Positions 298 to 52,255 of a stretch of 54,345 nt of DNA are shown piece by piece. The position numbers and the translations under genes were made by a program. Below the pieces are notes generated by a model. The model saw nothing but the letters and a program-made list of their open reading frames with translations. It ran no database searches and was not told the origin of the DNA. Numbering within the stretch: the first letter of the stretch is position 1; every line of letters begins with the position of its first letter. Source of the DNA: an uncultured Dokdonia sp. (lineage in GTDB: Bacteria > Bacteroidota > Bacteroidia > Flavobacteriales > Flavobacteriaceae); NCBI RefSeq assembly GCF_947496725.1, contig NZ_CANMDS010000008.1, forward strand, positions 1 through 54,345, written 5' to 3'.

Positions 298-312
298 TTT
301 CGCGAAAGCGTA
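298..312. repeat. Dispersed palindrome, degenerate copy 1
   Basis: Reads TTTCGCGAAAGCGT; the left arm is eroded (ATTT in place of CTTT). Intergenic, downstream of the DUF4294 gene. Confidence 0.6.
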
Positions 313-342
313 AAAGGTACACTACTCTAAAGTATATAGGTA

Positions 343-1023
343 CTACTCTACTCCTTTATTCTTCCACTTATCTGATAATTCGAGAAATTTAAAATCTAAC
401 ACACTAGGCTGCGGCTCAAGTATACCTGATTGAAAAGAACGCTGTAGTATATCTTCTATAAGGTAATCCTCTTGTTCTTGTTCTGGATTGAATTCTCTCT
501 TAAGTGAAATATCAAAAGCGCTTGCGGTGGTGTTATACCAAAATGCTCTCCAGCCACTGCGTAGTCTCTTTATTAACTCGAAGGCTGTCTCACCTGTTTG
601 ACGATGTATGAGTTTAATAAGTATTTGCCCCTCTGTGCGTGTGAGTTTCTTAAGCTCTGCCGAAAATTCGCCTTCTAGGTACTTATGAATGATTTTTGTG
701 TATTTCTTTCTAGCACGTTTTCCTTCTATGGAGTCAAGTCTATTATTAAGCGCGACCAGCCTATCTGCAGCGAGTTTTGCATAAGGAAAAACCTTTCTGG
801 TTTTACGGCGCAGTATTAGGTATCGTCTTCGGTCTTGCTTATTATCAAATTTTAGCCTTTTAAAAACAATTACCTCATTAAGATCTATAGCGCTCCTTGG
901 AATGGTGTCCCCTTGAATTATGTAATATTCAATTTCAACTTCTGTTGAATCTACAGGAGTTTCTTGAGCTTGTGCAAGCCCTGCTATGAATACTATTATA
1001 TATAGGAGATTATGTATGCGCAT
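343..1023 (-). CDS. DUF4294 family protein, exported
   Basis: 226 aa. An N-terminal signal peptide (about residues 1-19, ending AQA before QETP) predicts export to the periplasm. The rest is a charged, mostly helical domain rich in Arg/Lys (residues 55-150), with the conserved look of the Bacteroidota DUF4294 family, including a segment reading KVFPYAKLAADRL. Function of the family is not known to me. It diverges from the M42 peptidase gene across 108 bp; a -7-like TAATTTTG lies on the minus strand at 1056-1063. The family assignment is from memory of its sequence pattern. Confidence 0.8.
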   Translation of the reverse strand: MRIHNLLYIIVFIAGLAQAQETPVDSTEVEIEYYIIQGDTIPRSAIDLNEVIVFKRLKFDNKQDRRRYLILRRKTRKVFPYAKLAADRLVALNNRLDSIEGKRARKKYTKIIHKYLEGEFSAELKKLTRTEGQILIKLIHRQTGETAFELIKRLRSGWRAFWYNTTASAFDISLKREFNPEQEQEDYLIEDILQRSFQSGILEPQPSVLDFKFLELSDKWKNKGVE

Positions 1024-1131
1024 CTTTTTTATTTCGCTTTAAGCTAAAATCATTCCAAAATTAAAGATTAGAGTGCTATAACGTCATTAACTCTTGGTTA
1101 ATATTCTTACTTTTAAAAAAAATATTATTCT

Positions 1132-2229: not shown

Positions 2230-2247
2230 ACGCTTTCGCGAAAGCGT
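2230..2247. repeat. Dispersed palindrome, copy 2
   Basis: Exact 18-base palindrome ACGCTTTCGCGAAAGCGT in the convergent gap between the M42 peptidase and menB, 8 bases before the terminator hairpin. Confidence 0.95.
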
Positions 2248-3197: not shown

Positions 3198-4340
3198 ATG
3201 ATGAAAAAAGTACTACTAAGTATTGTGGTTGTTTTTGCTTTCGCGAAAGCGTATTACGCACAAGAAAACACTACGGGTTCTTACATTTTTACAGATACTA
3301 TTGATTTACAGGCTACACCAGTCATAAGTCAAGGAGTAACAGGAACGTGCTGGAGTTTTAGTACATCTTCATTTTTAGAAAGCGAGATTGCTAGACTTAC
3401 TGGTAAAATGGTAGATCTTTCGGAAATGTACACAGTAAGGAATACTTACCCGTCAAAAGCTGAAAATTATGTAATGCGTCAAGGAAAGGCTCAATTTTCT
3501 GAAGGCGGACTCGCGCACGATGTCATTAATAGTGTTACGCGTTATGGCCTAGCACCAAACAGCGCCTACACCGGCCTGACACTTACAGACACCAAACATA
3601 ACCACGCCGAAATGGTGGCCGTTATACATAGTATGCTAGACACTTATATAGATAATCCAGGAAGAACTTTAAGCAAAAAGTGGAAAACCGCAGTAGATAA
3701 GGTGCTGGATGTTTATCTAGGTGAGAATATTACTAATTTTTCTTATGATGGCAAAACATACACTCCTAATGAGTTTGCAAATACAATGAAGATAGTGCCT
3801 AGCGATTATGTAACACTAACTTCTTTTACTCACCAGCCATTTTACAAATCATTCATCCTTAATATTCCTGATAACTTTTCTAATGGTGCGATGTATAATC
3901 TTCCGCTAGATGAGTTTGTCTTAAATATAGATAACGCATTGAGCAACGGTTTTACAGTAACGCTAGATTGTGATGTGAGTGAGTTATCTTTTTCTTCAAA
4001 ACACGGTGTAGCTGTAATTCCAGACAATGAAAGTAATAAGAAGCTCGCTGTACTAGGACCAGAGCTAGAAAAAACAATTACACAACAATACCGTCAAGAT
4101 GAGTTTGAAAACTACAATACTACAGATGACCACTTGATGCATATTACAGGGAAAGCAACAGATCAAAATGGTAATGTCTATTATAAAGTAAAAAACTCGT
4201 GGGGTACAGAAACTGGAAGAACGAAGTATGATGGCTACATATATATGAGTGTGCCCTACATACGTCTCAAAGCTATCTCTGTGCTTATGCATAAAGAAGG
4301 GCTAGATAAAGCTACCTCAAAAAAAATGAGCAAAAACTAG
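3198..4340 (+). CDS. Exported C1 family cysteine peptidase (bleomycin hydrolase / PepC-like)
   Basis: 380 aa. Papain-clan catalytic residues are visible: Gln45 and Cys51 in the segment QGVTGTCWSFSTSS (spacing as in papain), His in DDHLMHITG, and Asn in KNSWGTETG near the C-terminus. This arrangement matches aminopeptidase C / bleomycin hydrolase. Unlike the cytoplasmic enzymes it has a signal peptide (residues 1-21, ending AYYA before QEN), so it likely works in the periplasm or outside. Oddity: a copy of the dispersed palindrome encodes A14-A18 (AFAKA), placing a Lys in the signal peptide. Two ATG codons are adjacent (3198, 3201). Confidence 0.9.
   Translation: MMKKVLLSIVVVFAFAKAYYAQENTTGSYIFTDTIDLQATPVISQGVTGTCWSFSTSSFLESEIARLTGKMVDLSEMYTVRNTYPSKAENYVMRQGKAQFSEGGLAHDVINSVTRYGLAPNSAYTGLTLTDTKHNHAEMVAVIHSMLDTYIDNPGRTLSKKWKTAVDKVLDVYLGENITNFSYDGKTYTPNEFANTMKIVPSDYVTLTSFTHQPFYKSFILNIPDNFSNGAMYNLPLDEFVLNIDNALSNGFTVTLDCDVSELSFSSKHGVAVIPDNESNKKLAVLGPELEKTITQQYRQDEFENYNTTDDHLMHITGKATDQNGNVYYKVKNSWGTETGRTKYDGYIYMSVPYIRLKAISVLMHKEGLDKATSKKMSKN
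3237..3252. repeat. Dispersed palindrome, copy 3 (coding, AFAKA frame)
   Basis: GCTTTCGCGAAAGCGT inside the signal-peptide region of the C1 peptidase gene; translated as AFAKAY. Confidence 0.95.
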
Positions 4341-7540: not shown

Positions 7541-8668
7541 CTATAAAACAGTTGCAACTGTCTGCAATTTATTTACAGTTTCCTCCCACTCTAACGCCGG
7601 CTTACTAGAAGCGGTTATACCACCACCTACATATAATTGTGCGCCCTGAGCATCTACTTCCATACAGCGTAGATTCACAAATAGATGCGTATGCTTTTTC
7701 ACAGCGCCGTAGGCTAGATTCTCAACATTACGACGTGTGCTTGCTCGTTTTTTTTCTGTCTTTATATTGAGCTCTCCTAAAAAACCAGTATAATATGATC
7801 TATTATAATTCTCATTTTGTAAGATAAAATCTCTGGCCTCAAGCTTAGGCAAACCACATACGGCTGGCGTAGGGTGCAGTGCTTGTATTATAGATGCAAG
7901 CTTAGCATCATTATCGTGTACTATAGCAGTAATATCTGTTTTAAGATGCAATAAAGTACCAGCTTGATGCGTATGGGTTTCAGACACTTTCAAGTCTTCT
8001 ACTACATCTCTAAGATTATATGCTATAGTATCTGTAACAAGCTGCTGCTCTTCTATTTCCTTTGCTCCCCAGCTTACCTCTAGAGTATCTTCTTTCTTCT
8101 GTGTGCCAGCTAGCGACATTGTATAAAGCTTTCTATTTTCGACCGAGAGAAGGGTTTCGGGTGTGGCGCCTAGCCATAATCCTACTTTAGGGTGATACCA
8201 GCAATACACAAAAGCTGTTGCGTAGCTGTCCAGCAATCTTTTAAAAATAGATATAGGTGACTCATAGTTGTGATTTATTTTTTGCTTTCGCGAAAGCACA
8301 ACTTTCTTCAATCCAGTAGTTTCAATCTCATTTATACCACTTTCTACAAGTGCAATATGTTGCTCTTTTGCTCCTTGAGCCGCTTCAACCGAAGTTGTTA
8401 CATTCTCCTCGTTAGATTGAGTAGTTACATACACATCTAGACGCATCTCATAAGACTGTGATTGCGGAATCAATATGGTTTCTGACGTAGTTGTGTCAAA
8501 AGGAGCAAACACAAATCCACTCTCAATAAAGTCTGAAACAGTATATAACTCATCTTCTTCTTGAAGCAAAGCAGTAACCTTTTTTTGGTTTGGCTTCCTG
8601 TATACCACAAAGGGTAATGCTTCATCAAAATGATTTTGAATCTCTATAAAGAATGCGTTTTGATCCAT
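7541..8668 (-). CDS. menF: Isochorismate synthase
   Basis: 375 aa chorismate-binding enzyme converting chorismate to isochorismate, the entry to menaquinone synthesis. C-terminal motifs include HPTPAVCGLP, YYTGFLGEL and NLRCME followed by LYVGGGITASSKPALEWEET, which bind Mg2+ and chorismate in the MenF/EntC family. Its neighbours menD and a hotdog thioesterase favour MenF over a siderophore EntC. The start overlaps the thioesterase stop as TAATG, indicating translational coupling. A palindrome copy encodes LSRK in the segment VVLSRKQKI. Confidence 0.92.
   Translation of the reverse strand: MDQNAFFIEIQNHFDEALPFVVYRKPNQKKVTALLQEEDELYTVSDFIESGFVFAPFDTTTSETILIPQSQSYEMRLDVYVTTQSNEENVTTSVEAAQGAKEQHIALVESGINEIETTGLKKVVLSRKQKINHNYESPISIFKRLLDSYATAFVYCWYHPKVGLWLGATPETLLSVENRKLYTMSLAGTQKKEDTLEVSWGAKEIEEQQLVTDTIAYNLRDVVEDLKVSETHTHQAGTLLHLKTDITAIVHDNDAKLASIIQALHPTPAVCGLPKLEARDFILQNENYNRSYYTGFLGELNIKTEKKRASTRRNVENLAYGAVKKHTHLFVNLRCMEVDAQGAQLYVGGGITASSKPALEWEETVNKLQTVATVL
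8283..8298. repeat. Dispersed palindrome, copy 4 (coding, LSRK frame)
   Basis: TGCTTTCGCGAAAGCA within menF. The outer base pair is changed symmetrically (T/A in place of C/G), preserving dyad symmetry. Confidence 0.95.
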
Positions 8669-10366: not shown

Positions 10367-10386
10367 TACGCTTTCGCGAAGGCGTA
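10367..10386. repeat. Dispersed palindrome, degenerate copy 5
   Basis: TACGCTTTCGCGAAGGCGTA, one mismatch to the 20-base palindrome, in the 35 bp convergent gap between the GNAT gene and mtaB. Confidence 0.9.
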
Positions 10387-11810: not shown

Positions 11811-13436
11811 TTGAAAAACACCCGCTCACTTTTACTCAATTATTCCTTACTTATACTTTGCATACTTAGTACTATAGGTTGTGACAAAGGTGATACGAGT
11901 GATCGTGATCATCAAGTTTTCAGATATAACGAGCAGTATCAAATTTCTACACTAGACCCTGCTTTTGCTCGTAACCCTCCTATAATATGGCCGGTTAACC
12001 AGCTATTTAATGGTCTGGTACAACTAGATAATGATCTTAATGTACAACCAGATATTGCAAAGTCTTGGGAAATATCTCAAGATGCGCTTACGTATACATT
12101 TATACTACGTGATGACGTGCGATTTCATAAACACCCTGCTTTTAACACTAAAGACAGTACACGCATAGTAACCGCTGCAGATTTTGTTTACTCCTTTAAT
12201 AGACTACGTGACCCAAAAATTGCCTCACCTGGGAGCTGGGTATTGGGCAATGTGGCAAGTTACAGCGCTGTAAATGACACCACATTTACCATTACATTAA
12301 AGAAGGCCTTTCCCGCTTATCTAGGTTTACTTAGTATGCGCTACTGCTCTGTTGTTCCTAAAGAGATTACTACACATTATGGTAACGAGTTTAGATCTCA
12401 CCCCATAGGCACTGGGCCATTTAAGTTCAAACGCTGGGAAGAAGGTGTAAAACTAGTATTACGTAAAAATGAGCTCTACTATGAAAAAGATGAGGATGGC
12501 AACCAGCTACCCTATCTTGAGGCGGTCGCCATTACATTTTTACCAGATAAGCAAAGTGAGTTTTTACAATTTGCACAAGGCAATATAGATTACCTTAATA
12601 GTTTAGATCCATCATATAAAGATGAGATTCTTACCGCTTCTGGCACTTTAAGAGCAAAGTATCAAGATCGCGTACAGCTTGAAAAAGTACCGTGGCTTAA
12701 TACAGAGTACATAGGCTTTTACTTAGACAGTGACACGCCAGAGGTACAATCTGCTTTACTACGCAAGGCGGTAAACTACGGTTTTGATCGTAAAAAAATG
12801 ATTACGTACCTGCGCAATGGTATCGGCAAGCCGGCTGTAAATGGTTTTATACCTAAAGGGCTACCTGGCTATGATCATATAAAAGGATATAATTATAATG
12901 GTACGCTTTCGCGAAAGCTCATAGCACAATACATTAAAGAAACAGGAGACACATCTCCAGAAATCACCATAGGCACAAACAGCCAGTACCTAGATATCTG
13001 TGAGTACATACAACGAGAGTTACAAAAGGTAGGTTTAAAAGTAAATATAGACGTGATGCCTCCATCTACGCTACGACAGATGAAGAGTAGCGGAGAGCTA
13101 GATGCCTTTAGAGCAAGCTGGATTGCAGATTATCCAGATGCCGAAAACTACTTAAGCTTATTTTATAGTAAGAACTTCACGCCAAATGGACCAAACTACA
13201 CGCATTTTAAAAGTGCAACCTATGATAGTTTATACGAGCATAGTTTGAGCATTACAGATATAGGCCAGCGCAAAAAATTATATCGCACTATGGATTCTCT
13301 TATAATAGACAAGTCTCCTATTATACCGCTTTATTATGACGAGGTAGTGCGCTTTACTCAAAAAACGATTTCTGGTTTTGAACCTAATGCACAAAACTTT
13401 CTTGTGTTGAAATATGTGAAGAAGCAAAAATTATAA
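11811..13436 (+). CDS. ABC transporter substrate-binding lipoprotein (peptide/nickel family 5)
   Basis: 541 aa. Starts at TTG 11811: no ATG precedes the signal sequence MKNTRSLLLNYSLLILCILS, which ends in a lipobox with Cys24. The mature protein is a family 5 extracellular solute-binding protein, shown by YNEQYQISTLDPAFARNPP, DIAKSWEISQDALTYTFILR, FHKHPAF and PIGTGPFKFKRWEEG. Such proteins deliver oligopeptides or similar ligands to an ABC importer, but no permease or ATPase gene is adjacent, so the partner must be elsewhere. A palindrome copy encodes LSRK in the segment GTLSRKLIAQ. Confidence 0.9.
   Translation: MKNTRSLLLNYSLLILCILSTIGCDKGDTSDRDHQVFRYNEQYQISTLDPAFARNPPIIWPVNQLFNGLVQLDNDLNVQPDIAKSWEISQDALTYTFILRDDVRFHKHPAFNTKDSTRIVTAADFVYSFNRLRDPKIASPGSWVLGNVASYSAVNDTTFTITLKKAFPAYLGLLSMRYCSVVPKEITTHYGNEFRSHPIGTGPFKFKRWEEGVKLVLRKNELYYEKDEDGNQLPYLEAVAITFLPDKQSEFLQFAQGNIDYLNSLDPSYKDEILTASGTLRAKYQDRVQLEKVPWLNTEYIGFYLDSDTPEVQSALLRKAVNYGFDRKKMITYLRNGIGKPAVNGFIPKGLPGYDHIKGYNYNGTLSRKLIAQYIKETGDTSPEITIGTNSQYLDICEYIQRELQKVGLKVNIDVMPPSTLRQMKSSGELDAFRASWIADYPDAENYLSLFYSKNFTPNGPNYTHFKSATYDSLYEHSLSITDIGQRKKLYRTMDSLIIDKSPIIPLYYDEVVRFTQKTISGFEPNAQNFLVLKYVKKQKL
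12903..12918. repeat. Dispersed palindrome, copy 6 (coding, LSRK frame)
   Basis: ACGCTTTCGCGAAAGCT within the peptide-binding lipoprotein gene; core exact, outer right base changed. Confidence 0.93.
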
Positions 13437-16157: not shown

Positions 16158-16175
16158 ATGCTTTCGCGAAAGCGT
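16158..16175. repeat. Dispersed palindrome, copy 7
   Basis: ATGCTTTCGCGAAAGCGT abutting the dnaA/gltD terminator; core exact, one outer base asymmetric. Confidence 0.95.
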
Positions 16176-17657: not shown

Positions 17658-20600
17658 CTAGTTTGCTAATGTTTTTTCTTCTTCTAATCTTATCAATGCC
17701 TTGCGGTACTCTTCTGGTAACACTTTCGTGAAATTTTTAATCTCTGTATCCCAGTTTTCTAACAGTCGTTGAGCCAGTGGAGAGAGCGTGGCGTTGTAAT
17801 GATTTTCAACTAATTGCCTAAGCTCTTTCTTATCTTGATCTTCCTCAACTTTAAGGAAGTTAAGCCCCTCTGTGTTTGCTTTTCGCGAAAGCGTACTTGC
17901 TGTGTCATACACATAAGCAATACCGCCACTCATACCAGCGCCAAAGTTTCTTCCCACCTCGCCTAATATGACTGCAATACCTCCTGTCATATACTCACAA
18001 CCGTGATCACCTATACCCTCTACAACGGCTTTTGCTCCAGAATTACGTACACAAAAACGTTCTCCAGCTTTACCATTTATATATGCCTCACCAGCGGTAG
18101 CACCATAAAATGCTACATTACCTATAATGACATTATCTTCTGGTATAATGGTCGCCTCTACCGGAACCTTCACTATTACCTTGGCCCCAGAAAGTCCTTT
18201 ACCTATGTAATCATTTGTATTACCAGTAACTGCCAGTGTGAGTCCGTGCGTCGCAAAGGCTGCAAAACTCTGCCCTGCAGAACCCTCGAAGTTAATTTTT
18301 AAAGTGTTTTCTGGTAATCCATTCACACCGTAAATCTTAGATATCTCATTACTTAATATAGCTCCTACTGCTCTATCTTCATTTGTAATCTTAAGATCTA
18401 GTGTGGTTTTTTCTTTTCTAAAAAGTGCCGGGTGCGCCTGTGATATAATTTTAAAATCAAGCGCTTTCTCAAGGTCGTGATCTTGCTTTTCTACATTATG
18501 CAAAGGCTGTCCTTTTGAAGTGTCTACCTTATGTAATATAGGGGTAAGGTCTAAGCCTAACGCTTTGTACTGCTCTATGGAGTTATTGCGATCCAGCTTT
18601 TGCACTTGACCTACCATTTCATCTACCGTTTTAAATCCAAGCTTTGCCATAATCTCACGCAACTCTTGCGCTACGAAATACATAAAGTTTACTACGTGCT
18701 CTGGTTTTCCTTTAAAACGCTTACGTAGTTCTGGGTTTTGAGTAGCAATCCCTACCGGACAAGTGTTTAAATGACATACACGCATCATTATACATCCAGA
18801 GGCTACTAGCGGTGCTGTTGCAAAGCCAAACTCTTCGGCTCCTAGCAAACAAGCAATTGCTACGTCTCGGCCTGTTTTGAGCTGACCATCGCACTCAAGT
18901 CGTACACGCCCACGTAAATCATTCATCACAAGGGTTTGCTGTGCTTCTGCTAGACCTAGTTCCCAAGGTAAACCGGTATGTTTTAGCGAGGTAAGAGGTG
19001 TTGCTCCTGTACCTCCATCGTGTCCAGATATAAGTATTACATCTGCTTTTGCTTTTGCAACTCCAGCTGCTACAGTACCTACACCCACTTCAGACACTAG
19101 CTTCACATTAATACGCGCTTCTCTATTTGCAGATTTGAGATCATAAATTAACTGCGATAAATCTTCTATAGAGTAAATGTCGTGATGTGGTGGTGGCGAT
19201 ATAAGCCCTACATATGGTGTAGAATTACGTGTTTTTGCAATCTCAGGATTTACCTTAGGTCCAGGCAACTGTCCGCCCTCACCAGGTTTTGCTCCTTGCG
19301 CCATTTTTATTTGTATCTCGGCAGCGTTTGTTAGGTAGTTTGAGGTTACCCCAAAACGCCCTGAAGCCACTTGCTTTATGGCGCTGTTTTTCCAATCGCC
19401 ATTTACGTCCTTATAAAAACGCTCTTGATTTTCTCCTCCCTCACCAGAGTTAGACTTACCATCTATACGGTTCATTGCTACGGCAAGTGTCTCGTGAGCT
19501 TCCTTACTAATAGAACCATAAGACATCGCACCTGTTTTAAAACGCTTTACAATATCTGTCCACGGTTCTACTTCATCAATATCTATAGGATCATAATTAG
19601 TAAACTCAAATAGACCACGTATGGTCATAAGCTGTTTAGCTTGATTATTTACACGATCTGCATACTCTTTATAAATAACAGGCTTATTGCTACGCACAGA
19701 TTCTTGAAGCTTTGCAATGGTAAGCGGATTAAATAAATGTGCCTCTCCATCTCTTCTCCATCTATACTCACCACCTATCTCAAGAGGAAGATCTGCTGCG
19801 ATATCTTTTGTATGATATGCTGTCTTATGCCTTTTACTTATCTCACCTTCTAACTGGTGTAGCCCTACACCTTCTATTCTCGTAACCGTGCGCGGGAAGT
19901 ACTGATTTACTACCTTTTTACTGATACCTATACACTCAAAAAGTTGTGAGCTCCGGTATGAGTTAAGGGTAGAGATACCTATTTTATTCATCACCTTGAG
20001 GACTCCTTTGCCTACGGCTTTATTAAAATTTTGTATTGCTTCCTCTACATCAACATTTGCAAGTTTTAAATCTTCTGGATGGTTTTCTATAATCTCATTA
20101 ACCATATATGGGTTTATGGCACTAGCACCATATCCAAATAATAAAGCAAAGTGATGCACCTCTCTAGGCTCTGCAGACTCTATAATGAGGCTAAAACTGG
20201 ATCTCTTTTTATTGCCGCCTAGCCCATTATTTACATAAGAGCACGCAAGTAATGCTGGTATGGGTGCAAGCTCTTGAGATGTGTTTCTATCTGACAAGAT
20301 AATGATGTTTGCACCTTCATCTAGCTGTTGAGAAACCTCTTGAAGTAAGTTTTCTAAAGCATCCTCCAAGCCATTGTGTCCTTTTTCTACCTTATATAAA
20401 ATAGGCACAGAGACTACCTTAAAGCTCTCGTTATCTAAACTTTTGATTTTATCTAAATCTTGTTTTGAGATAACAGGATTTTGAATTTTTAGCTTCTTAC
20501 AATGCTCTCCGTTTATTTCAAAAATATTTGAGTCTGCACCCAGCGTGAGTGAGATATCTGTAATTAACTCCTCTCGTATACCATCTAGAGGTGGGTTTGT

Positions 20601-25103: not shown

Positions 25104-25119
25104 CGCTTTCGCGAAAGCG
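25104..25119. repeat. Dispersed palindrome, copy 10
   Basis: CGCTTTCGCGAAAGCG between the amt terminator and the tyrosine phosphatase gene. Confidence 0.95.
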
Positions 25120-34861: not shown

Positions 34862-34898
34862 AGTTATGAGTTGTTTTATTGATGTTATGTGGGAAGAA

Positions 34899-34920
34899 TT
34901 ACGCTTTCGCGAAAGCGTAA
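34899..34920. repeat. Dispersed palindrome, copy 13 (longest perfect copy)
   Basis: A perfect 22-base palindrome: the 20-base unit with one more T on the left and A on the right. It lies in the leader of the TPR gene between promoter and start codon. Confidence 0.95.
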
Positions 34921-34942
34921 AAACGCCCTTTTCTAGCCTGTT

Positions 34943-34971: not shown

Positions 34972-35143
34972 GACCTAAATCTTTGTTAATTATGTGAAGT
35001 TGTAAAAAGGGTTTTTAACAATCTTGTTTAATAGCTCAAAATAGCGCTGAGCATCATATAACTGAGATACTTAAAGAAATTTTTAGAAGGTCATAAAACA
35101 CTTTCATCTAAATTCCGTTACTTTGAAACTCAGACCAAAACTT

Positions 35144-35827: not shown

Positions 35828-35911
35828 TCTTTTTATCAAAACAAGCTACCGGCTATCGTTTTTATAAGCGTAGTCATACATCATCTTAATATTGTATTTT
35901 CGTTTGCAGGT

Positions 35912-37715: not shown

Positions 37716-38093
37716 GGACTTGTAATTCTCATAGTTACGTATATAGTCATCTTCGTCATACTCGTGAGATGCCAGCACGAGACATACTGCTCCAGAAGAA
37801 AAGTTTTCTAACTCTCGCCAGATATTTACATCTATGAGTAAACCTTGATTTGGCTTATTAAGCATTACACGCTCCTTTTCTTTTCCATTATCAAGCACTA
37901 CTTCAAAACTCCCACTTACAGCAATGAGCAACTCCTTACACTCCTTATGAGCGTGACCTCCTCTATATGCTCCACTAGGCACATCGTGTAGATAATAAAC
38001 ACGCTTAATAGCATAAGGTAACACCTCTTTTTCTATCACGGCTAGATTACCTCTAGGGTCTGTAATTCTTGGTATTTCAATAAGGTTTTTCAT
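37704..38093 (-). CDS. FdtA/QdtA-like dTDP-sugar 3,4-ketoisomerase (WxcM-like cupin)
   Basis: 129 aa cupin. DPRGNLAVIE at the N-terminus and RGGHAHKECKELLIAVSGS with His47 and His49 are the active-site pattern of FdtA/QdtA, which move the keto group of dTDP-4-keto-6-deoxyglucose from C4 to C3. The product is aminated by an FdtB/QdtB aminotransferase, a candidate for which lies at 42136. FdtA and QdtA differ in product stereochemistry, which I cannot settle. Overlaps the upstream GT4 gene by 4 bases. Confidence 0.85.
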   Translation of the reverse strand: MKNLIEIPRITDPRGNLAVIEKEVLPYAIKRVYYLHDVPSGAYRGGHAHKECKELLIAVSGSFEVVLDNGKEKERVMLNKPNQGLLIDVNIWRELENFSSGAVCLVLASHEYDEDDYIRNYENYKSLKS

Positions 38094-39202
38094 AAGCTAT
38101 CTAGTAATTTTTTCCAGTCTAGAGCAATGTGTTCTGCGGCTAGATGTTTTACACTTTTTTGCGCATTTTTCTCACATCTACTAGCAAGCTCGCCATCTAG
38201 CACAAATGTACGAATGGCGGTACTTAAAGCCACCTCATCATAATTTGCTACTAGCATACCGTTTATACCGTTTTGCACAATCTCTTTTGGTCCTGAGTCA
38301 CAATCCACACTTATAACCGGAGTACCTAGCGCTAGTGACTCTACAAGTACCATTGGGAAGCCTTCGTAATGACTAGTGAGTAAGGTGCACAAGGCTCGCT
38401 CCACTACAGGCGCGGGATTAGATTGATACCCTATAAAGATGACTTTATCATTTATTCCAAGAGATTTTGAGAGTGTTGCTAGCTTTTTGGCATCTGGACC
38501 ATCTCCCATAATCACGAGAGGTAGTTTTAAGTTCGCTTTCGCGAAAGCGGAAATCATCAAACTAAAGTTCTTCACATCATCTACCAGTCGTCCATACCCT
38601 AAAAGATACGTCTCTGGAAGACTTACATTGCTCTTGCCAAAAGTCATTTTTGGTATAGGATTATACACCTGGTGAATATGTTTAAAGCCGTATCTCGCTT
38701 TAATTCTTGCAGCAATACTTTTTGAAACTCCTACAAAGTGACTCTTACCATAAAACCATTTTGCAAGCATATCTGGTGCTGGAAAATATGTTTCTAATCG
38801 AGCACTTCGCACCATATAAAGTATCCTTTGGGCTTTATAAATGTACTTTATGTATACCCATTCTTTTAAGGCAGAAGATCGAGACCTGCTATCTATAACA
38901 AGATCAAACTGCTCATTATGTAAGTAATTCTTTAATCTTTTGAGGTGCTTATACTTTGTTACTAGGCCGTCGTCCTTACGCTTATCTGCGCCTAGATTAA
39001 ATAATGTCCCTTCATAGGGATAAGAAACTCCATCTCTTATACAGATGATATGTACCGTATGCCCAAGACCTGTGAGTACTTGTGATAAAAATGCCGTAGA
39101 CCGCTCTGCACCACCCCCAGATAGGGAGATTGTAACAAGTGCAATTTTTTTATGAGTATCTTTCGGCAACAGAAGGAGTTTTTGTTTACCAAATATAATC
39201 AA
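38090..39202 (-). CDS. Glycosyltransferase family 4
   Basis: About 359-370 aa, GT-B fold. Glycine-rich N-terminal loop IALVTISLSGGGAERSTAFL, and the C-terminal donor site YEGFPMVLVESLALGTPVISVDCDSGPKEI with the EX7E pair. The start is uncertain: TTG 39202 or, more likely, TTG 39169 directly before PKDTHKKIALV, since the first overlaps the divergent gene at 39202. A palindrome copy encodes AFAKAN in the segment ISAFAKANLKLP. It retains sugars using a nucleotide-sugar donor; acceptor unknown. Confidence 0.9.
   Translation of the reverse strand: MIIFGKQKLLLLPKDTHKKIALVTISLSGGGAERSTAFLSQVLTGLGHTVHIICIRDGVSYPYEGTLFNLGADKRKDDGLVTKYKHLKRLKNYLHNEQFDLVIDSRSRSSALKEWVYIKYIYKAQRILYMVRSARLETYFPAPDMLAKWFYGKSHFVGVSKSIAARIKARYGFKHIHQVYNPIPKMTFGKSNVSLPETYLLGYGRLVDDVKNFSLMISAFAKANLKLPLVIMGDGPDAKKLATLSKSLGINDKVIFIGYQSNPAPVVERALCTLLTSHYEGFPMVLVESLALGTPVISVDCDSGPKEIVQNGINGMLVANYDEVALSTAIRTFVLDGELASRCEKNAQKSVKHLAAEHIALDWKKLLDSL
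38534..38549. repeat. Dispersed palindrome, copy 14 (coding, AFAKA frame)
   Basis: CGCTTTCGCGAAAGCG in the GT4 gene, between the two Rossmann-like domains. Confidence 0.95.
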
Positions 39203-40338: not shown

Positions 40339-40869
40339 CTAAAAGAATGTAACTCCCGCAGCTACCGAGGATGTCACAACGCTTCCAGCAGCAATCACGG
40401 CATTATCACCTATGGACACACCTTTCCAGATGCTCACATTATTGCCTATAAAAACGTTTTTACCTATCGTTACTGCGGCACTTGGTCCAGCATCGGTTCG
40501 GCGTCTGGTGGGGTCAAGACTGTGAAAATTACAATTATAAATGGAGCAATTAAGCCCTATTGTTGTATCATCTCCTATCACAATCGTTCCTTCGTTTGCT
40601 ATGGCGCAAAAATTATTATTTATCGCAACGTTGTTCCCAAAAACAATCTCACTTCCCTCCTTTCTTGCCTCTATATAAGCATAGGTATTGTAAAATGATG
40701 GAGAATTAATGACACCTATTTGTACGCTTTCGCGAAAGCGTATCACACCCTTCCCATTAAGTTGTGCGGGTTGATAAAGCATAGGTTTGCCGTCTACATA
40801 GGTAGTCTGTGAGAGCAACTTGTACTTCCAGATTCTAAATGATTGCAATATGTTACCTAGGCTACTCAT
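40339..40869 (-). CDS. Left-handed beta-helix acyltransferase, apparently 3'-shortened
   Basis: 176 aa. Hexapeptide repeats (for example IVIGDDTTIGLNCSIYN and VTIGKNVFIGNNVSIWKG) give a trimeric left-handed beta-helix of the WbbJ/maltose acetyltransferase type, with the catalytic His in NFHSLD. It would acetylate a sugar or glycan. It ends VVTSSVAAGVTFF and stops exactly where relatives continue with GNPA and a closing helix; the stop abuts the convergent GT gene. A palindrome copy encodes RFRES. Overlaps the flippase gene by 8 bases. Confidence 0.82.
   Translation of the reverse strand: MSSLGNILQSFRIWKYKLLSQTTYVDGKPMLYQPAQLNGKGVIRFRESVQIGVINSPSFYNTYAYIEARKEGSEIVFGNNVAINNNFCAIANEGTIVIGDDTTIGLNCSIYNCNFHSLDPTRRRTDAGPSAAVTIGKNVFIGNNVSIWKGVSIGDNAVIAAGSVVTSSVAAGVTFF
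40723..40742. repeat. Dispersed palindrome, copy 15 (coding, RFRES frame)
   Basis: Complete 20-base palindrome TACGCTTTCGCGAAAGCGTA in the acyltransferase gene. It is the only copy read in the RFRES frame (segment VIRFRESVQIG). Confidence 0.95.
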
Positions 40870-42142: not shown

Positions 42143-43242
42143 TTAAAGTCGTTTATGGCTTTTATAATCTGGGTAATCTCCGTTTTAGCAAGCGATGGAC
42201 TGATAGGTAAACTGAGCACCTCACTATGCAACTGCTCGCAAACCGGTAAGGACATAGATGCAAGCTCTTGTAAAGCCTCTTGCTTGTGTGGAGGCACAGG
42301 ATAATGTATAATCGTTGCGATACCATTTGCCTTGAGATGTTCTTGTAACGCATCCCTCTGTGCACAGCGCACTACAAATAGATGCCAGACGTGATCCTTA
42401 CCCTCAGACCATTGTGGCAAAATAATGTGTTCATTATTTATCCCTTCAAGATATTGCTTTGCAATCGCAATACGCTTACTGTTCTGCGTGTCTAGATCTC
42501 TAAGTTTTATTCTCAAAAAAGCAGCCTGCAGTTCGTCGAGGCGGCTATTTACTCCAGTATATTGTGCGACATAACGCTCTTTAAAACCGTAATTTCTATA
42601 TTTTTCTACAACTTCGGCTAGCGCTTTGTCATTTGTGGTGATTGCTCCCGCATCACCTAGAGCACCTAGATTTTTTGTGGGGTAAAAGCTATGACCGCTC
42701 GCATCTGCCAGAGAGCCACTGCGCTTACCAGAAGCTGTAATTGCCCCGTGTGATTGTGCACAATCTGTAACGGTGAGTAGGTTGTACGCTTTCGCGAAAG
42801 CGTTAACCCTATCCATATCTGTAAGTCTGCCATACAAATGTGTAGGCATAATCACTCTTGTCTTTGACGTGAGCTTCTGTTCTAAATCGCTATAATCAAA
42901 GTTGAATGTATCAAGATTTGCCTCAACTAGTATAGGTATTAATCCCGCTTGTTTAACACCAATGATGGTTGCGATATAGGTGTTACTCGCAACAAGCACC
43001 TCATCGCCCACTTGTAGTTTACCTAGTATTTTATAGCCTTCTAGAATGAGTCTCAAGGCGTCAAGACCATTTGCTGTACCTATACAAAATTGAGTGCCAC
43101 AGTAAGCCGCGTACTCTTTTTGAAAAGCAGTCACCTCGTTGCCCAGAATGTACCATCCCTTCTCTAAAAAAGAATCGAACTTATTTTTAAGCTCCTTTTC
43201 ATAAGGTGCGTTTATCTCTTTTAAGTCTAAAATTGGAATCAT
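42136..43242 (-). CDS. DegT/DnrJ/EryC1/StrS family aminotransferase (FdtB/WecE-like)
   Basis: 368 aa PLP enzyme that aminates a nucleotide-linked keto sugar. The Schiff-base lysine is about Lys190 (HSFYPTKNLGALGDAGAI), with TANGLDAL near residue 56, DCAQSHGA at 160 and NSRLDELQAAFL. With the FdtA-like isomerase at 37704 the likely product is a dTDP-3-amino-3,6-dideoxyhexose; a WecE-type 4-amination is the alternative. A palindrome copy encodes AFAKAY in the segment VNAFAKAYNLL. Four-base overlap with the upstream acyltransferase gene. Confidence 0.9.
   Translation of the reverse strand: MIPILDLKEINAPYEKELKNKFDSFLEKGWYILGNEVTAFQKEYAAYCGTQFCIGTANGLDALRLILEGYKILGKLQVGDEVLVASNTYIATIIGVKQAGLIPILVEANLDTFNFDYSDLEQKLTSKTRVIMPTHLYGRLTDMDRVNAFAKAYNLLTVTDCAQSHGAITASGKRSGSLADASGHSFYPTKNLGALGDAGAITTNDKALAEVVEKYRNYGFKERYVAQYTGVNSRLDELQAAFLRIKLRDLDTQNSKRIAIAKQYLEGINNEHIILPQWSEGKDHVWHLFVVRCAQRDALQEHLKANGIATIIHYPVPPHKQEALQELASMSLPVCEQLHSEVLSLPISPSLAKTEITQIIKAINDFKC
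42786..42803. repeat. Dispersed palindrome, copy 16 (coding, AFAKA frame)
   Basis: ACGCTTTCGCGAAAGCGT in the aminotransferase gene, about 40 codons before the PLP lysine. Confidence 0.95.
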
Positions 43243-44240
43243 ATCAAGACATCTTTAAGTAGTGAATGATTCTGTACGGCAACTTTATAGAATTTGTGAA
43301 CGTGGGTACGTGCTCCAAAACATTCTTTCCAGTAAGATAAGCCACTATTGAGTTTTGTGCCGCCCTCTTCGTTTGAAATACCAAAATCAAAATAGTCTTT
43401 ATGTACAAAGGTTTGCTCTATGAGCTCATAAAACAAGAAGTCTAGCGTTCCTAACTCCTGCTTATTCTCTCCTGCCGAAATATATTGAACGTGTGCCGTG
43501 GTTTTAGTCTCGAATATAGTTGCTCCTCCTACTATCGTATTATTATGGTAGACATTAAACTGCCTTATGTTTTCTGGAAAAGAAGCTTGTAGCTTTTTTA
43601 TTTCCTCTAGTGTATGTGTGGGTTGTGATTGATGTTTTTGCTTTAGGTTAGGTACGAGTATCTCGTTCCAAAAGTTGTCAAAACCTACTTCCTCTTTTAT
43701 AACCAGACCTGCTCTGTCTGCTTTTTTTACTCCTTCCATACGATTAGATTGTATGGATAATTTATTCCTGTAATTTATCACAGACGCAGTATCTACCCGG
43801 TAACAGCTAGCACTAAGTAATTGTGCGATATACTCAAACTCATCACTGGGCATCACCGCATAAAACGTGGGAAGCTGTTTTAGATATAAAGATATGAAGC
43901 CTTGCTGCTGCGCATACTTTAATATTTCTTGAGTAATTGCTATGACATCTTGTAGTTTTTGCTTTCGCGAAAGCAAAATACCACCATACGTTAATCCCTG
44001 ATGACTGTATAGATCATTCCCGTCTGCATTAGCCGGAAGGAGCGCAATAAGTTTTTCACCTTTATAAACCAGCAGCGAGTAATCTGTAAACCTATCGCTG
44101 TGATACTCCATAAAGGAACGGTCGTGTAGAAAGGTCGCATTTTTTGCCTGTGCTACAAATTTGTTCCAGCGCTGGACATCTGCGGATTGATATTTTTTTA
44201 CAGTATAGATAGTTTGGTTGCGAGTTTTAGGATATTTCAA
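43239..44240 (-). CDS. FemAB/GNAT-like acyltransferase (Acetyltransf_6 type)
   Basis: 333 aa. Double-GNAT layout: an N-terminal half (KNATFLHDRSFMEYHSDRF) and a C-terminal half with VGGATIFETKTTAHVQYISAGEN and LDFLFYELIEQTF, then FDFGISNEEGGTKLNSGLSYWKECFGA, typical of FemAB-like proteins in Bacteroidota glycan loci. It is first of a four-gene run with aminotransferase, flippase and hexapeptide acyltransferase, so it may N-acylate the amino sugar. A palindrome copy encodes LSRK in the segment ILLSRKQKLQ. Confidence 0.82.
   Translation of the reverse strand: MKYPKTRNQTIYTVKKYQSADVQRWNKFVAQAKNATFLHDRSFMEYHSDRFTDYSLLVYKGEKLIALLPANADGNDLYSHQGLTYGGILLSRKQKLQDVIAITQEILKYAQQQGFISLYLKQLPTFYAVMPSDEFEYIAQLLSASCYRVDTASVINYRNKLSIQSNRMEGVKKADRAGLVIKEEVGFDNFWNEILVPNLKQKHQSQPTHTLEEIKKLQASFPENIRQFNVYHNNTIVGGATIFETKTTAHVQYISAGENKQELGTLDFLFYELIEQTFVHKDYFDFGISNEEGGTKLNSGLSYWKECFGARTHVHKFYKVAVQNHSLLKDVLI
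43959..43976. repeat. Dispersed palindrome, copy 17 (coding, LSRK frame)
   Basis: TTGCTTTCGCGAAAGCAA: the outer pair is symmetrically changed from C/G to T/A, as in menF, keeping a perfect palindrome. Confidence 0.95.
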
Positions 44241-44290
44241 TAAAAGTAAAACTATTTTTAATTCTATAGGATATGGTAAGAGATTAAATT

Positions 44291-44308
44291 ACGCTTTCGC
44301 GAAAGCGC
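44291..44308. repeat. Dispersed palindrome, copy 18
   Basis: ACGCTTTCGCGAAAGCGC between the FemAB-like gene start and the typA terminator, only 332 bases from copy 17. Confidence 0.95.
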
Positions 44309-44310
44309 AT

Positions 44311-44341
44311 AAAAAAACCCCACTCTTATAAAGCGGGGTTT
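44311..44341 (-). terminator. Terminator after typA
   Basis: AAACCCC pairs with GGGGTTT around an AT-rich loop; on the minus strand a T-run follows. Two bases from the palindrome copy. Confidence 0.85.
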
Positions 44342-44365
44342 ATGATTTATAAGAATACTAAATCC

Positions 44366-47041: not shown

Positions 47042-47056
47042 TTTTCGCGAAAGCGT
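47042..47056. repeat. Dispersed palindrome, degenerate copy 19
   Basis: TTTTCGCGAAAGCGT in the ndk leader, with the left arm eroded. Confidence 0.8.
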
Positions 47057-50000: not shown

Positions 50001-50022
50001 ATATATAAACACAAGTAACCTA

Positions 50023-51486
50023 CTAAGCCACTGGTATATCCTCTAATATCTCAATAACAAAATCCCAGTACTTCTGAGCACTTGAAATACTTGCTCTCTC
50101 ATCTGGAGAGTGCGCTCCTTTTATAGTAGGCCCAAAGGATATCATATCCATCTCAGGATAGTTTTGACCTAAAATACCACACTCTAATCCTGCGTGACAA
50201 GCAGCTACGTGCGGAGCTTCATTATTTATTTCTTTATACTTTGCTTCAAGCACTTTTAAAATGGCACTATCCATATTAGGCGCCCATCCTGGATAATCTC
50301 CAGAAAGCGCTACATCAAAACCTGCAAGCTCAAAAGTAGCTGTAAGTGTATTTGCAAGATCATCTTTAGAGCTATCTACAGATGAACGAGTAAGACATCC
50401 TATTTTTATACTTCCATCTTTTACTATAACTCTTGCTATGTTATTTGATGTCTCTACTAGGTCTGCTATATCTGGACTCATTCTGTACACACCATTATGT
50501 GCCGCGTAGATAGCTTTGAGCAACTGTGCTTGTGACTCAAGACTCATCACATTATCATCTAGATCTATTTGCTTGATAGAAAGCTCTAGCTCTTTTTCTA
50601 GTGAAGCATATTCACCGTGTATTGCTGCCGCCATATCTGTAAAATCTGCTTCAAAAGCAGCTTTCTGATTTTCGTCTACAGCTATGATAGCTACGCTTTC
50701 TCTTGGTATCGCGTTACGCAAACTACCGCCATCTATACTAGATATACGTATTTCAAAATTTTCTGCGGCATTGTATAACAGACGGTTCATCATCTTATTT
50801 GCATTACCTAGGCCTTTTATAATATCCATCCCAGAGTGACCTCCGTTAAGACCTGCCACTTTTACTTCATAACCTACAAGACCGTCATCTAGTCCCTCTT
50901 CTGTATAGGTACGTGTAGCCGTGATATCTACACCACCTGCACAACCTACACCTATCTCATCATCTTCTTCTGTATCAAGGTTAAGTAAGATATCGCCTTT
51001 AAGAATTCCTCCTTTAAGACCCATTGCTCCTGTCATCCCAGTCTCTTCATCTATTGTAAAAAGCGCCTCAATAGCAGGATGCTCTATGGTAGTACTTTCA
51101 AGCACAGCCATTATGGTTGCCACTCCAAGACCATTATCTGCTCCTAGTGTAGTGCCTTTTGCACGTACCCAGTCACCATCTACATACATCTCAATACCTT
51201 GATTGTCAAAATCAAACTCGGTATCATTATTTTTTTGATGCACCATATCAAGGTGTGACTGCATCACAATCATCTTTTTATCTTCGTGACCTGCAGTAGC
51301 TGGTTTTCTTATGATCACATTCCCTACTTCATCCTCTATCGTTTCTAGGCCAAGCTTAGTCCCAAAATCTTTCATAAACGCAATCACACGTTCCTCCTTT
51401 TTAGAAGGTCGTGGTACGGCATTAAGATCGGCAAATTTATTCCAGAGTGCTTTTGGCTCGAGATTTCTTATTTCTTGATTATCCAT
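50023..51486 (-). CDS. pepD: Aminoacyl-histidine dipeptidase (Xaa-His dipeptidase, M20)
   Basis: 487 aa from ATG 51486 (a further ATG at 51504 is possible). It hydrolyses Xaa-His and other dipeptides in the cytoplasm. The family opening IRNLEPKALWNKFADLNAVPRPSKKEE and the metal sites MQSHLDMVHQ, TLGADNGLGVA, DEETGMTGA and CHAGLECGIL are visible, with a typical dimerisation domain in the middle. Follows pssA on the same strand by 46 bases, so the two may share a transcript. Confidence 0.93.
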   Translation of the reverse strand: MDNQEIRNLEPKALWNKFADLNAVPRPSKKEERVIAFMKDFGTKLGLETIEDEVGNVIIRKPATAGHEDKKMIVMQSHLDMVHQKNNDTEFDFDNQGIEMYVDGDWVRAKGTTLGADNGLGVATIMAVLESTTIEHPAIEALFTIDEETGMTGAMGLKGGILKGDILLNLDTEEDDEIGVGCAGGVDITATRTYTEEGLDDGLVGYEVKVAGLNGGHSGMDIIKGLGNANKMMNRLLYNAAENFEIRISSIDGGSLRNAIPRESVAIIAVDENQKAAFEADFTDMAAAIHGEYASLEKELELSIKQIDLDDNVMSLESQAQLLKAIYAAHNGVYRMSPDIADLVETSNNIARVIVKDGSIKIGCLTRSSVDSSKDDLANTLTATFELAGFDVALSGDYPGWAPNMDSAILKVLEAKYKEINNEAPHVAACHAGLECGILGQNYPEMDMISFGPTIKGAHSPDERASISSAQKYWDFVIEILEDIPVA

Positions 51487-51532
51487 TGTGTTCAAATTTT
51501 TCACAAAGATAATAGCTTGAAATAAGCTAGAC

Positions 51533-52255
51533 CTATGATTGCTCCCTAAAAACTAAGGAAAGAAGAATGTATAAGATAATAATAAGAGGAACTCCTAAAA
51601 ATTGAAAGAACACCAGTAATAATACACTGGCTAGTAAGAATAAGTAGCGCACTTTATTTTGGCCAAAAGACCAGTTTTTAAACTTCAACGCAAATAAAGG
51701 AAGTTCTGCATTGAGCATAAAACAACTTAATGCGGTAAGTAATATAAGGACATATGGGTTTTCTAATAACGCTTTCGCGAAAGCGTACTCCTCAAACATT
51801 ATTATAAGCGGCAAGCTTAGTATAAATAAGGTATTTGCAGGCGTAGGAAGTCCTATAAAAGAATTAGTCTGACGATCATCTACATTAAATTTTGCTAGCC
51901 TATATGCCGAAGCCATCGTTATTGCAAAGCCTATATACCCTAAGTGAAAGTGCTGCTCTTCAAGTGCCGCTCCCCAAGGGATACCGCTAGCATCTTCTAG
52001 CAGTTGATACATCACCACACCAGGCACTACACCACTAGTCACCATATCTGCCAGTGAGTCTAGTTGCAATCCTACCTCACTAGAGGCATTGAGAATACGC
52101 GCAAAAAATCCATCAAAAAAATCAAAGAAAATCCCAAGAGCTACAAATATTGCAGCAAGTTCAAGCCTGTCATTTACAGCAAATACGACTGCGACACAAC
52201 CGCTTAAAAGGTTGCCCATTGTGATGGCATTAGGTACGTAACTCTTTATAGACAT
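51533..52255 (-). CDS. pssA: CDP-diacylglycerol-serine O-phosphatidyltransferase
   Basis: 240 aa membrane enzyme making phosphatidylserine, the precursor of phosphatidylethanolamine. The CDP-alcohol phosphotransferase motif is complete: D45, D48-G49, A52-R53, G62, D66 and D70. About seven hydrophobic helices follow. The N-terminus SYVPNAITMGNLLSGCVAVVFA fits PssA rather than phosphatidylglycerophosphate synthase. A palindrome copy encodes AFAKAL in a loop between helices (segment EYAFAKALLENP). Confidence 0.92.
   Translation of the reverse strand: MSIKSYVPNAITMGNLLSGCVAVVFAVNDRLELAAIFVALGIFFDFFDGFFARILNASSEVGLQLDSLADMVTSGVVPGVVMYQLLEDASGIPWGAALEEQHFHLGYIGFAITMASAYRLAKFNVDDRQTNSFIGLPTPANTLFILSLPLIIMFEEYAFAKALLENPYVLILLTALSCFMLNAELPLFALKFKNWSFGQNKVRYLFLLASVLLLVFFQFLGVPLIIILYILLSLVFREQS
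51770..51787. repeat. Dispersed palindrome, copy 20 (coding, AFAKA frame)
   Basis: ACGCTTTCGCGAAAGCGT in pssA, between predicted membrane helices. Confidence 0.95.

What the first reader, a model, noticed from the sequence alone, without database searches (positions are those of the whole stretch)
298..51787. Highly iterated palindrome with core CTTTCGCGAAAG
Seen: 16 exact copies of CTTTCGCGAAAG and 4 degenerate ones (298, 10367, 17878, 47042) in 54 kb; eleven extend to CGCTTTCGCGAAAGCG and the longest is a 22-base perfect palindrome. At an assumed 39% GC, about 0.002 exact copies are expected by chance. Known comparison: highly iterated palindromes such as HIP1 of cyanobacteria, or chromosome-organising sites (KOPS, matS, Chi). 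Inference: a genome-wide site read by a DNA-binding, repair, methylation or nucleoid protein, or a REP-like DNA hairpin. I do not recall a described function for this sequence.
Basis: partly seen in the sequence, partly recalled or inferred. Interest (0 to 1): 0.88.

Follow-up and report, generated by a model that had tools for sequence, protein, structure and literature searches.

The report
Regular genome-wide palindrome lattice in Dokdonia
Marine flavobacteria of the Dokdonia and Nonlabens groups carry about 380 to 940 copies of one 12-base mirror-type DNA word (often extended to 16-22 bases), spaced unusually evenly along the chromosome and conserved in place, which points to an unknown protein that reads the whole chromosome rather like a ruler.

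Summary
In detail: 16 exact and 4 one-mismatch copies in the window, 937 exact in its 3.29-Mb genome, control 0. All 18 Dokdonia genomes searched have 383-937 copies. In the family, six of 397 sampled genomes (Dokdonia, g11 taken as Nonlabens, g191) have 445 or more; the other 391 have 0-21. In 400 kb the copies are far more even than chance (CV 0.51, null about 1.0; E. coli Chi 1.03), 44% intergenic in about 11% of the DNA, and 85 of 88 alignable copies are intact in a relative of 94% identity. About 20-25 nt on either side are composition-constrained: 5' arm poor in C, 3' arm poor in G, symmetric, without pairing; weak in g191. Best reading: binding site of an unidentified dimeric protein that organises the chromosome. 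Uptake sequence, Chi-like site and methylation-linked palindrome are rivals. Metal-resistance islands carry copies into other genera. The reader protein was not found; RecC and ParB tests gave no support. No paper was found in an open-access library.

The parts
297..308 (.). degenerate copy (ATTTCGCGAAAG)
2233..2244 (.). exact copy
3238..3249 (.). exact copy
8285..8296 (.). exact copy
10371..10382 (.). degenerate copy (CTTTCGCGAAGG)
12906..12917 (.). exact copy
16161..16172 (.). exact copy
17880..17891 (.). degenerate copy (TTTTCGCGAAAG)
21719..21730 (.). exact copy
25106..25117 (.). exact copy between ORFs, 22 bases after a separate terminator-like hairpin (25050-25083, + strand); itself listed as terminator-like on the - strand
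28222..28233 (.). exact copy inside the ORF 26711-28348 (-); same codons in 8 of 10 other Dokdonia genomes and in g191 (G207)
32542..32553 (.). exact copy inside the ORF 31841-34945 (-); same codons in 9 of 10 other Dokdonia genomes
34904..34915 (.). exact copy; centre of the 22-base perfect palindrome 34899-34920
38536..38547 (.). exact copy inside the ORF 38090-39202 (-); same codons in 6 of 6 other Dokdonia genomes that align
40727..40738 (.). exact copy inside the ORF 40339-40869 (-), read as FRES; same codons in 6 of 6 that align
42789..42800 (.). exact copy inside the ORF 42136-43242 (-); same codons in 9 of 10
43962..43973 (.). exact copy inside the ORF 43239-44240 (-); same codons in 4 of 10
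44294..44305 (.). exact copy between ORFs, beside a separate terminator-like hairpin (44341-44315, - strand); itself also listed as terminator-like on the - strand
47042..47053 (.). degenerate copy (TTTTCGCGAAAG)
51772..51783 (.). exact copy
34879..34940 (.). example of the full element as proposed: 12-mer plus 25 bases on each side; on average over the sampled copies the 5' arm is G/T-rich and C-poor, the 3' arm A/C-rich and G-poor
   Evidence: 123, 139 and 227 sites

Best explanation
The palindrome is the target of an unidentified sequence-specific, dimeric DNA-binding protein of Dokdonia, Nonlabens and g191. Each protomer reads a half-site TTACGCTTTCG and favours about 20 further base pairs without C on the strand that runs 5' into the palindrome. 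Some 380-940 such sites per genome, on average every 3-7 kb, form a lattice that the protein uses to fold, bridge or partition the chromosome. SHOWN: copy number, regular spacing in the samples, conservation in place, origin without insertion in the genes examined, placement where it costs least (intergenic; in genes 40 of 69 in the frame reading Ala-Phe-Ala-Lys-Ala), symmetric composition-constrained arms in Dokdonia and Nonlabens, confinement to few lineages, carriage by transferred islands and phage-like contigs. INFERRED: that a protein reads it, that it acts as a dimer on double-stranded DNA, and that the function is chromosome organisation rather than uptake, repair or methylation.
For: 937 copies; 18 of 18 Dokdonia. 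Even spacing in 400 kb of G000: CV 0.51, variance/mean 0.15 per 20 kb, neighbouring intervals anticorrelated, -0.28; of 1000 random placements keeping the genic/intergenic split none had CV under 0.77 or variance/mean under 0.28, and their 0.5% quantile for the correlation is -0.21. G001: 5-8 sites in 16 of 18 samples of 20 kb. BBFL7, 220 kb: CV 0.62, variance/mean 0.28-0.36, correlation -0.18. Conserved: 85 of 88 alignable copies intact in G001 at 94.3% identity; with independent changes about half would be (my arithmetic). In window genes 43 of 56 copy-genome pairs with other Dokdonia are exact at the same codons (the pairs include near relatives). Arms: C 0.058 in G000, 0.077 in G001, 0.063 in G427, 0.060 in other Nonlabens, backgrounds 0.159-0.191 (5-20 nt outside the 12-mer). 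Arm positions change about as often as background (0.062 against 0.050 per nt), C/T changes half as often per nt (30 of about 3,500 against 525 of about 33,000), A/G, G/T and A/T changes more often. Both arms are constrained in in-gene copies whichever strand is coding, also at third codon positions, so the function is in the DNA rather than in one transcript. [quoted passage not shown]
Against: No binding protein identified. The 400 kb of G001 orthologous to the sample is less regular (CV 0.78, variance/mean 0.43 per 20 kb). In g191 the arms are only weakly C-poor (0.163 against 0.222; 13 sites), so strong arms are not universal. A/C and C/G changes in the arms are as frequent per nt as in the background (13 and 9), so the case for selection rather than mutation bias rests on the C/T class. 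A roughly 10-bp repeat in the arms, which would suit contacts on one face of a duplex, is weak (p 0.03-0.31 in six tests), and C avoidance shows none (p 0.31), which suits recognition of a single strand equally well. Regular spacing can follow from any need for one site per few kb.
Confidence: 0.4

Rival explanations
1. DNA uptake sequence: the site is recognised on incoming DNA during natural transformation, and biased uptake with recombination keeps the genome filled with copies.
For: Copy number and in-place origin resemble those of uptake sequences, and a low number of one-mismatch copies is described for uptake sequences too (PMC1939737, passages); in 454 kb of G000 there are 139 exact and 17 one-mismatch copies. 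Copies sit in DNA exchanged between genera.
Against: The same paper describes uptake sequences as not palindromic and not so even (passages). Competence genes were not searched and competence of these bacteria was not looked up.
Confidence: 0.17
2. A two-way Chi-like site: it stops or switches an AddAB-type recombination nuclease coming from either side, and the G/T-rich 5' arm on each strand helps RecA to load.
For: Mean spacing in G000 (3.2 kb) is close to Chi of both strands in 200 kb of E. coli (3.4 kb). Arms are G/T-rich 5' of the core on both strands. The one phage of a Nonlabens-group host examined, P12024S, has no copy within 2 mismatches in 35,000 of its 35,700 bases (its host genome was not examined). 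RecA preference for GT-rich DNA is recalled, not looked up.
Against: Chi in the E. coli sample is spaced at random (CV 1.03, variance/mean 1.55 per 20 kb; 0.34 per 40 kb on only five windows; one strand alone CV 0.87). Known Chi words are short and asymmetric (recalled). RecC is not found in 24 of 24 genomes with or without the lattice; AddAB was not searched. No comparable word of 10 or 12 bases among the top-ranked words in 15-50 kb of each of 8 other genera.
Confidence: 0.14
3. A HIP1-type palindrome kept by a DNA methyltransferase and methylation-linked repair.
For: In cyanobacteria HIP words go with methyltransferases for their inner part, and one-base deviants are biased to the first and last base (PMC4390886, abstract). 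Here 12 of 17 one-mismatch copies in G000 and 7 of 13 in G001 deviate at the outer base.
Against: In BBFL7 0 of 10 deviants are outer. TCGCGA outside the listed copies is not frequent (3 of 23 in the window). None of 13 one-mismatch copies in the 400 kb deviates in the central CGCG; of 3 copies changed in G001, 2 deviate there, by G to T, so no sign of methyl-cytosine decay. A core of up to 22 bases with arms is longer than methyltransferase targets that I know of (recalled). Methylation could not be tested and methyltransferases were not searched.
Confidence: 0.1
4. An RNA or DNA hairpin element (terminator, RNA-processing site or REP-like mobile hairpin).
For: The core forms the hairpin in the predicted fold of 3 of 3 tested copies (z -2.1, -1.0, -3.3). 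54 of 123 copies are intergenic. Of 9 exact copies in window 25000-44999, 2 (25106, 44294) are listed as terminator-like on the - strand by a permissive scan (23 found, 12.6 expected).
Against: 69 of 123 copies are inside genes. The 3' arm is A/C-rich, not T-rich, and separate terminator-like hairpins lie beside the same two copies. Beyond 3 bases from the 12-mer the arms do not covary (slight excess at bases 2 and 3, z 2.15 each). Copies in the genes examined align to site-less homologues without insertion. In genes both arms are constrained.
Confidence: 0.05

Closest known systems
HIP1 (GCGATCGC) and alternate HIPs of cyanobacteria
   Same: A palindrome repeated genome-wide far above expectation, not explained by transposition.
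   Different: Here a core of 12 invariant bases extending to 16-22, composition-constrained arms, regular spacing, another phylum, no methyltransferase link shown. Spacing of HIP1 itself was not measured here.
DNA uptake sequences (USS/DUS) of Pasteurellaceae and Neisseriaceae
   Same: Many copies, arising in place by point mutation, few near-misses.
   Different: Described as not palindromic and less even (PMC1939737, passages); competence of these hosts untested.
Chi of E. coli
   Same: Similar density.
   Different: Chi is short and asymmetric, and spaced at random in my 200-kb sample.
Palindromic chromosome-organising sites: parS/ParB, Noc sites, matS/MatP, SlmA sites (all recalled)
   Same: Palindromic sites of dimeric proteins that act on the chromosome as a whole.
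   Different: Known ones number roughly a hundred or fewer (recalled); here hundreds. The host ParB is single-copy and alike in genomes with and without the lattice.
REP/BIME elements (recalled)
   Same: Repeated palindromes, many intergenic.
   Different: No insertion seen, more than half in genes, no pairing of the flanks.

Membership tests
Highly iterated palindrome (HIP) | Palindromic word far above Markov expectation genome-wide | tested here: met
   123 in 400 kb against 0 in one simulated order-1 and one order-3 sequence; 937 genome-wide, control 0
Highly iterated palindrome (HIP) | A methyltransferase for the word or its inner part | not tested
   No methylation data; no methyltransferase search was run
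Highly iterated palindrome (HIP) | One-base deviants biased to the outer bases | tested here: inconclusive
   12 of 17 in G000, 7 of 13 in G001, 0 of 10 in G427
DNA uptake sequence | Raises uptake in a naturally competent host | not testable with these tools
   Needs uptake assays
DNA uptake sequence | As described for known ones: not palindromic, not strongly even (a description rather than a definition) | tested here: not met
   Palindrome; CV 0.51; description from PMC1939737, passages
Chi-type recombination site | Regulates the host's RecBCD/AddAB/AdnAB enzyme | not testable with these tools
   RecC not found in 24 of 24 genomes; AddAB not searched
Chi-type recombination site | Spacing like E. 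coli Chi | tested here: not met
   Chi CV 1.03 and variance/mean 1.55 per 20 kb in 200 kb; here 0.51 and 0.15 in 400 kb of G000, 0.78 and 0.43 in G001
parS / ParB-family site | An extra or re-specified ParB-family protein in lattice-bearing genomes | tested here: not met
   One PF02195 match in 10 of 10 lattice-bearing genomes, 1-3 in 12 others; in 7 lattice-bearing and 12 other sequences only one alignment column, in a variable stretch, separates the two sets; Nonlabens alone differs at two residues near the helix that I take for the DNA-reading one (recalled)
REP/BIME or other mobile hairpin | Inserted copies, mostly extragenic | tested here: not met
   69 of 123 inside genes; alignment without gaps to site-less homologues, e.g. 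at 27988
Intrinsic terminator | Hairpin followed by a T-run at gene ends | tested here: not met
   3' arm A/C-rich; 54 intergenic copies: 32 co-directional, 12 divergent, 10 convergent; 2 of 9 copies in 20 kb are nevertheless listed by a permissive scan
Chromosome-organising protein site | Bound by a protein that shapes the nucleoid | not testable with these tools
   Needs pull-down, ChIP, Hi-C

The most novel reading that the evidence does not exclude
A bacterial chromosome lattice of nearly fixed pitch: a lineage-specific, possibly horizontally moved DNA-binding protein has, through selection on point mutations, written about 380-940 copies of a palindrome of up to 22 bases with strand-composition arms into the genomes of at least two separate flavobacterial lineages, to organise the nucleoid at intervals of a few kb; the lattice decays where the protein is lost.
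Probability: 0.22. Interest if true: 0.95.

Novelty: new variant of a known kind. Interest (0 to 1): 0.8.

Why it matters
Chromosome-wide palindromes in bacteria (HIP1 above all) still lack an agreed explanation. This one is long enough to pull down its reader, regular enough to suggest a structural ruler, and present in some genera but not in close relatives, so that gain and loss can be compared. Named strains of Nonlabens carry it, so the reader protein and its function are directly testable. The site also marks DNA that moved from such bacteria into other genera.

Tried and rejected
Terminator, operator and RNA hairpin: rejected on placement, flanks and lack of arm covariation, although 2 of 9 copies in 20 kb pass a permissive terminator scan. 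Mobile or REP-like element: rejected, no insertions in the genes examined. Near-variants in other genera: the 14-mer with up to 2 mismatches in 239 family genomes gave 722-1281 in the same three genera; the next highest were 86 (g145, control 20) and 69 (g43, control 8). No other iterated 10- or 12-mer among the top-ranked words in 15-50 kb of each of 8 other genera; these eight were chosen because they hold transferred copies and are no random sample. RecC: not found in 24 of 24 genomes, E. coli control found. ParB: one copy in each of 10 lattice-bearing genomes, alike in sequence; no exact canonical parS in any locus held (the window was not scanned), none within 2 mismatches in the 19 parB loci. 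Phage and plasmid collections by blastn with a 30-base query: 41 and 6 records, all partial matches of 16-22 bases at E 2 or more. Lattice genera as one clade: the 7-protein tree puts Nonlabens outside, one-clade test p-AU 0.012; its branch was flagged as long in the earlier tree. Whether g145 is sister of g191 or outside Dokdonia plus g191 is unresolved.
Full report
WHAT IS THERE. The window holds 16 exact and 4 one-mismatch copies of CTTTCGCGAAAG, all 16 extending to GCTTTCGCGAAAGC and 11 to CGCTTTCGCGAAAGCG. The genome has 937 exact copies in 3,291,590 bases in 121 contigs; the reversed control has none. In a 400-kb sample of contig C1 there are 123 exact, 13 one-mismatch and 17 two-mismatch copies; one simulated order-1 and one order-3 Markov sequence gave 0, 0-2 and 10-14. 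Near-misses beyond chance are few; 9 of the 13 one-mismatch copies differ at the outermost base.

WHO HAS IT. The genus is Dokdonia: a hit contig of 1,213,926 bases titled uncultured Dokdonia has the same length as a contig of G017, a same-genus genome. All 18 genomes of the genus searched have 383-937 copies; the lowest two (383, 394) are 78% and 85% complete. Genomes of 4.8-5.5 Mb have 771-933 copies, no more than those of 3.3 Mb. Of 397 genomes of the family, six have 445 or more (two Dokdonia, three of g11, one of g191) and 391 have 0-21. A 26-base version searched exactly in a collection of 84,980 species met 5 stretches: two Dokdonia MAGs, Nonlabens tegetincola, Nonlabens ulvanivorans and Flavobacteria bacterium BBFL7 (the tool may leave out records very near the window). 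The last three have 580, 503 and 566 copies of the 12-mer.

HOW IT IS LAID OUT. In 400 kb of G000, 54 of 123 copies are intergenic although intergenic DNA is about 11% by a simple ORF caller; 69 lie in genes, 40 of these in the frame reading AFAKA. Per kb, convergent gaps are richest (10 in 4.4 kb; divergent 12 in 10.7; co-directional 32 in 25.3), as expected if the site avoids regulatory DNA. Spacing is regular: mean 3,204, CV 0.51, smallest of 122 intervals 328, lag-1 correlation -0.28, variance/mean 0.15 per 20 kb; of 1000 random placements none reached that CV or variance/mean, and the correlation lies below their 0.5% quantile. E. coli Chi in 200 kb gives CV 1.03 and variance/mean 1.55 per 20 kb, though 0.34 per 40 kb on five windows. 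Against this, the orthologous 400 kb of G001 gives CV 0.78 and variance/mean 0.43. BBFL7 gives CV 0.62 over 220 kb. In eighteen 20-kb samples of the complete G001 chromosome, 16 had 5-8 sites and the two at 285-325 kb had 2 each.

THE ARMS. Base composition is skewed for about 25 nt on both sides of the 12-mer: the 5' arm has little C, the 3' arm little G. Over 5-20 nt outside the 12-mer the C content (both arms read 5' into the core) is 0.058 in G000, 0.077 in G001, 0.063 in G427, 0.060 in other Nonlabens, 0.083 in the G093 island and in the clusters of other genera, 0.139 around the 11 g145 copies and 0.163 in g191 (13 sites), against backgrounds of 0.159-0.222. Left and right covary slightly at bases 2 and 3 outside the 12-mer (z 2.15 each) and not further out, where complementarity is mostly as expected or a little lower, so this is not a longer hairpin. 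In genes both arms are constrained whichever strand is coding, also at third codon positions. Between G000 and G001 arm bases change about as often as background (0.062 against 0.050 per nt), C/T changes half as often per nt, A/C and C/G changes as often, and A/G, G/T and A/T changes more often. The arms thus seem kept by composition, not by sequence; that selection and not mutation bias does this rests on the low C/T class. A faint 10-bp repeat (p 0.03 for purines, 0.08-0.31 for single bases; no value below 0.19 in the control stretch) is only a hint.

HOW IT EVOLVES. G000 and G001 align over 285 kb at 94.3% identity: 85 of 88 alignable copies are intact in both, 3 have one change, and no alignable copy is found only in G001; 35 of 123 G000 copies and 24 of 109 G001 copies could not be aligned and were left out. 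In window genes 43 of 56 copy-genome pairs with other Dokdonia are exact at the same codons (8/10, 9/10, 1/4, 6/6, 6/6, 9/10, 4/10; the 1/4 is 34904 near an ORF start, where the DNA alignment has 5 of 6). A copy at the place of 27988 exists in 5 of 10 other Dokdonia genomes where the window has GCTTTTGCCAAAGC, without indel. In-gene copies of g191 are at the same codons in Dokdonia in 2 of 5 testable cases, of g145 in 1 of 3, of Nonlabens in 1 of 14; in 7 of the other 13 Nonlabens cases the Dokdonia homologue has a copy elsewhere; some of the 14 are the same gene in two Nonlabens genomes. The Dokdonia DNA compared there is about a quarter of a genome. g145, near Dokdonia on all three trees, has 13 and 8 exact copies in two genomes and, in the first, 45 one-mismatch copies against a control of 19 at up to one mismatch. 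I read g145 as having lost the lattice; part of its copies may instead be received DNA. Nonlabens stands apart from Dokdonia plus g191 (p-AU 0.012), so the lattice arose twice, or is old and was lost often.

MOBILE DNA. Small clusters in other genera lie mostly in heavy-metal efflux genes: of 9 site-bearing proteins scanned, 6 are AcrB-type pump, OEP, CusB-like or P-type ATPase proteins and 3 are not. A pair 933 bases apart recurs in G093, G095, G104, G118 and G231. G093 (g77) has all its 19 exact copies in one stretch of about 78 kb. These look like islands received from lattice-bearing donors. In the 80 kb fetched, 6 of 25 copies have an inner mismatch, against 5 of 156 in G000; but G427 has 10 of 54, so decay outside the lineage is suggested, not shown. 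Of 12 virus records counted, 7 (picked for several copies) hold 2-5 copies and 5 hold one; of 10 proteins scanned, four match integrase, transposase, terminase and baseplate families. The one phage of a Nonlabens-group host examined, P12024S, has none.

WHAT IT DOES. A site of this length and symmetry, kept at hundreds of places and nearly indifferent to gene context, needs a reader. Regular spacing separates it from Chi in my E. [quoted passage not shown] I therefore favour a dimeric DNA-binding protein that organises the chromosome, at 0.4. The asymmetry between G and C in the arms needs base-specific or single-strand contacts (inference), which keeps a Chi-like and an uptake role alive.

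LITERATURE. No paper in the open-access library holds CTTTCGCGAAAG or GCTTTCGCGAAAGC; 'highly iterated palindrom' with Bacteroidetes, 'overrepresented palindrom' with Flavobacteri, and a five-term search gave none. Dokdonia or Nonlabens with 'palindrom' gave 5 and 7 papers, judged unrelated from the listing alone. For HIP1 I saw two listings and of PMC4390886 the abstract and outline and one passage search. Subscription journals are not in the library, so an earlier description cannot be excluded.

Noticed in passing
L032, L033, L035, L039 (scanned); L034, L036 (same gene length and 933-base pair, not scanned): Heavy-metal efflux genes in other flavobacterial genera carry the palindrome, often as a pair 933 bases apart in one 405-aa ORF: a tracer of transfer from lattice-bearing donors.
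   Followed up: partly
G093 C3:32332-110028 (most of it in L274-L277): A stretch of about 78 kb in a genus without the lattice holds all 19 exact copies of that genome, about 4.4 kb apart.
   Followed up: partly
L106, L120, L124, L128, L137, L138, L160: Viral contigs with several copies; single proteins of L106, L124, L138 and L160 match terminase, baseplate, integrase and transposase families.
   Followed up: partly
L211, L212 (G001 C1:285000-324999): 40 kb with only 4 copies, higher GC (0.41) and strong GC skew (-0.19).
   Followed up: no
L043, L230, L084 (G207): Another repeated word, ACAACGGTCT, 9 copies in 54 kb of g191.
   Followed up: no
19 parB loci among L326-L349: No canonical parS within 2 mismatches in the stretches held around parB (up to 20 kb each).
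   Followed up: no
G002, G013, G014, G016 against G000: Copy number (771-933) does not rise with genome size (3.3 to 5.5 Mb) within Dokdonia, so added DNA seems poor in sites.
   Followed up: no
G000 C1, e.g. 74644 and 141223: Some in-gene copies encode the end of signal-peptide-like stretches (e.g. FFVFFAFAKAQSQQT), a place where AFAKA may cost little.
   Followed up: no
G059 (g43): 49 copies at up to one mismatch against a control of 11 and 69 against 8 at up to two in the 14-mer: perhaps another decaying lattice.
   Followed up: no
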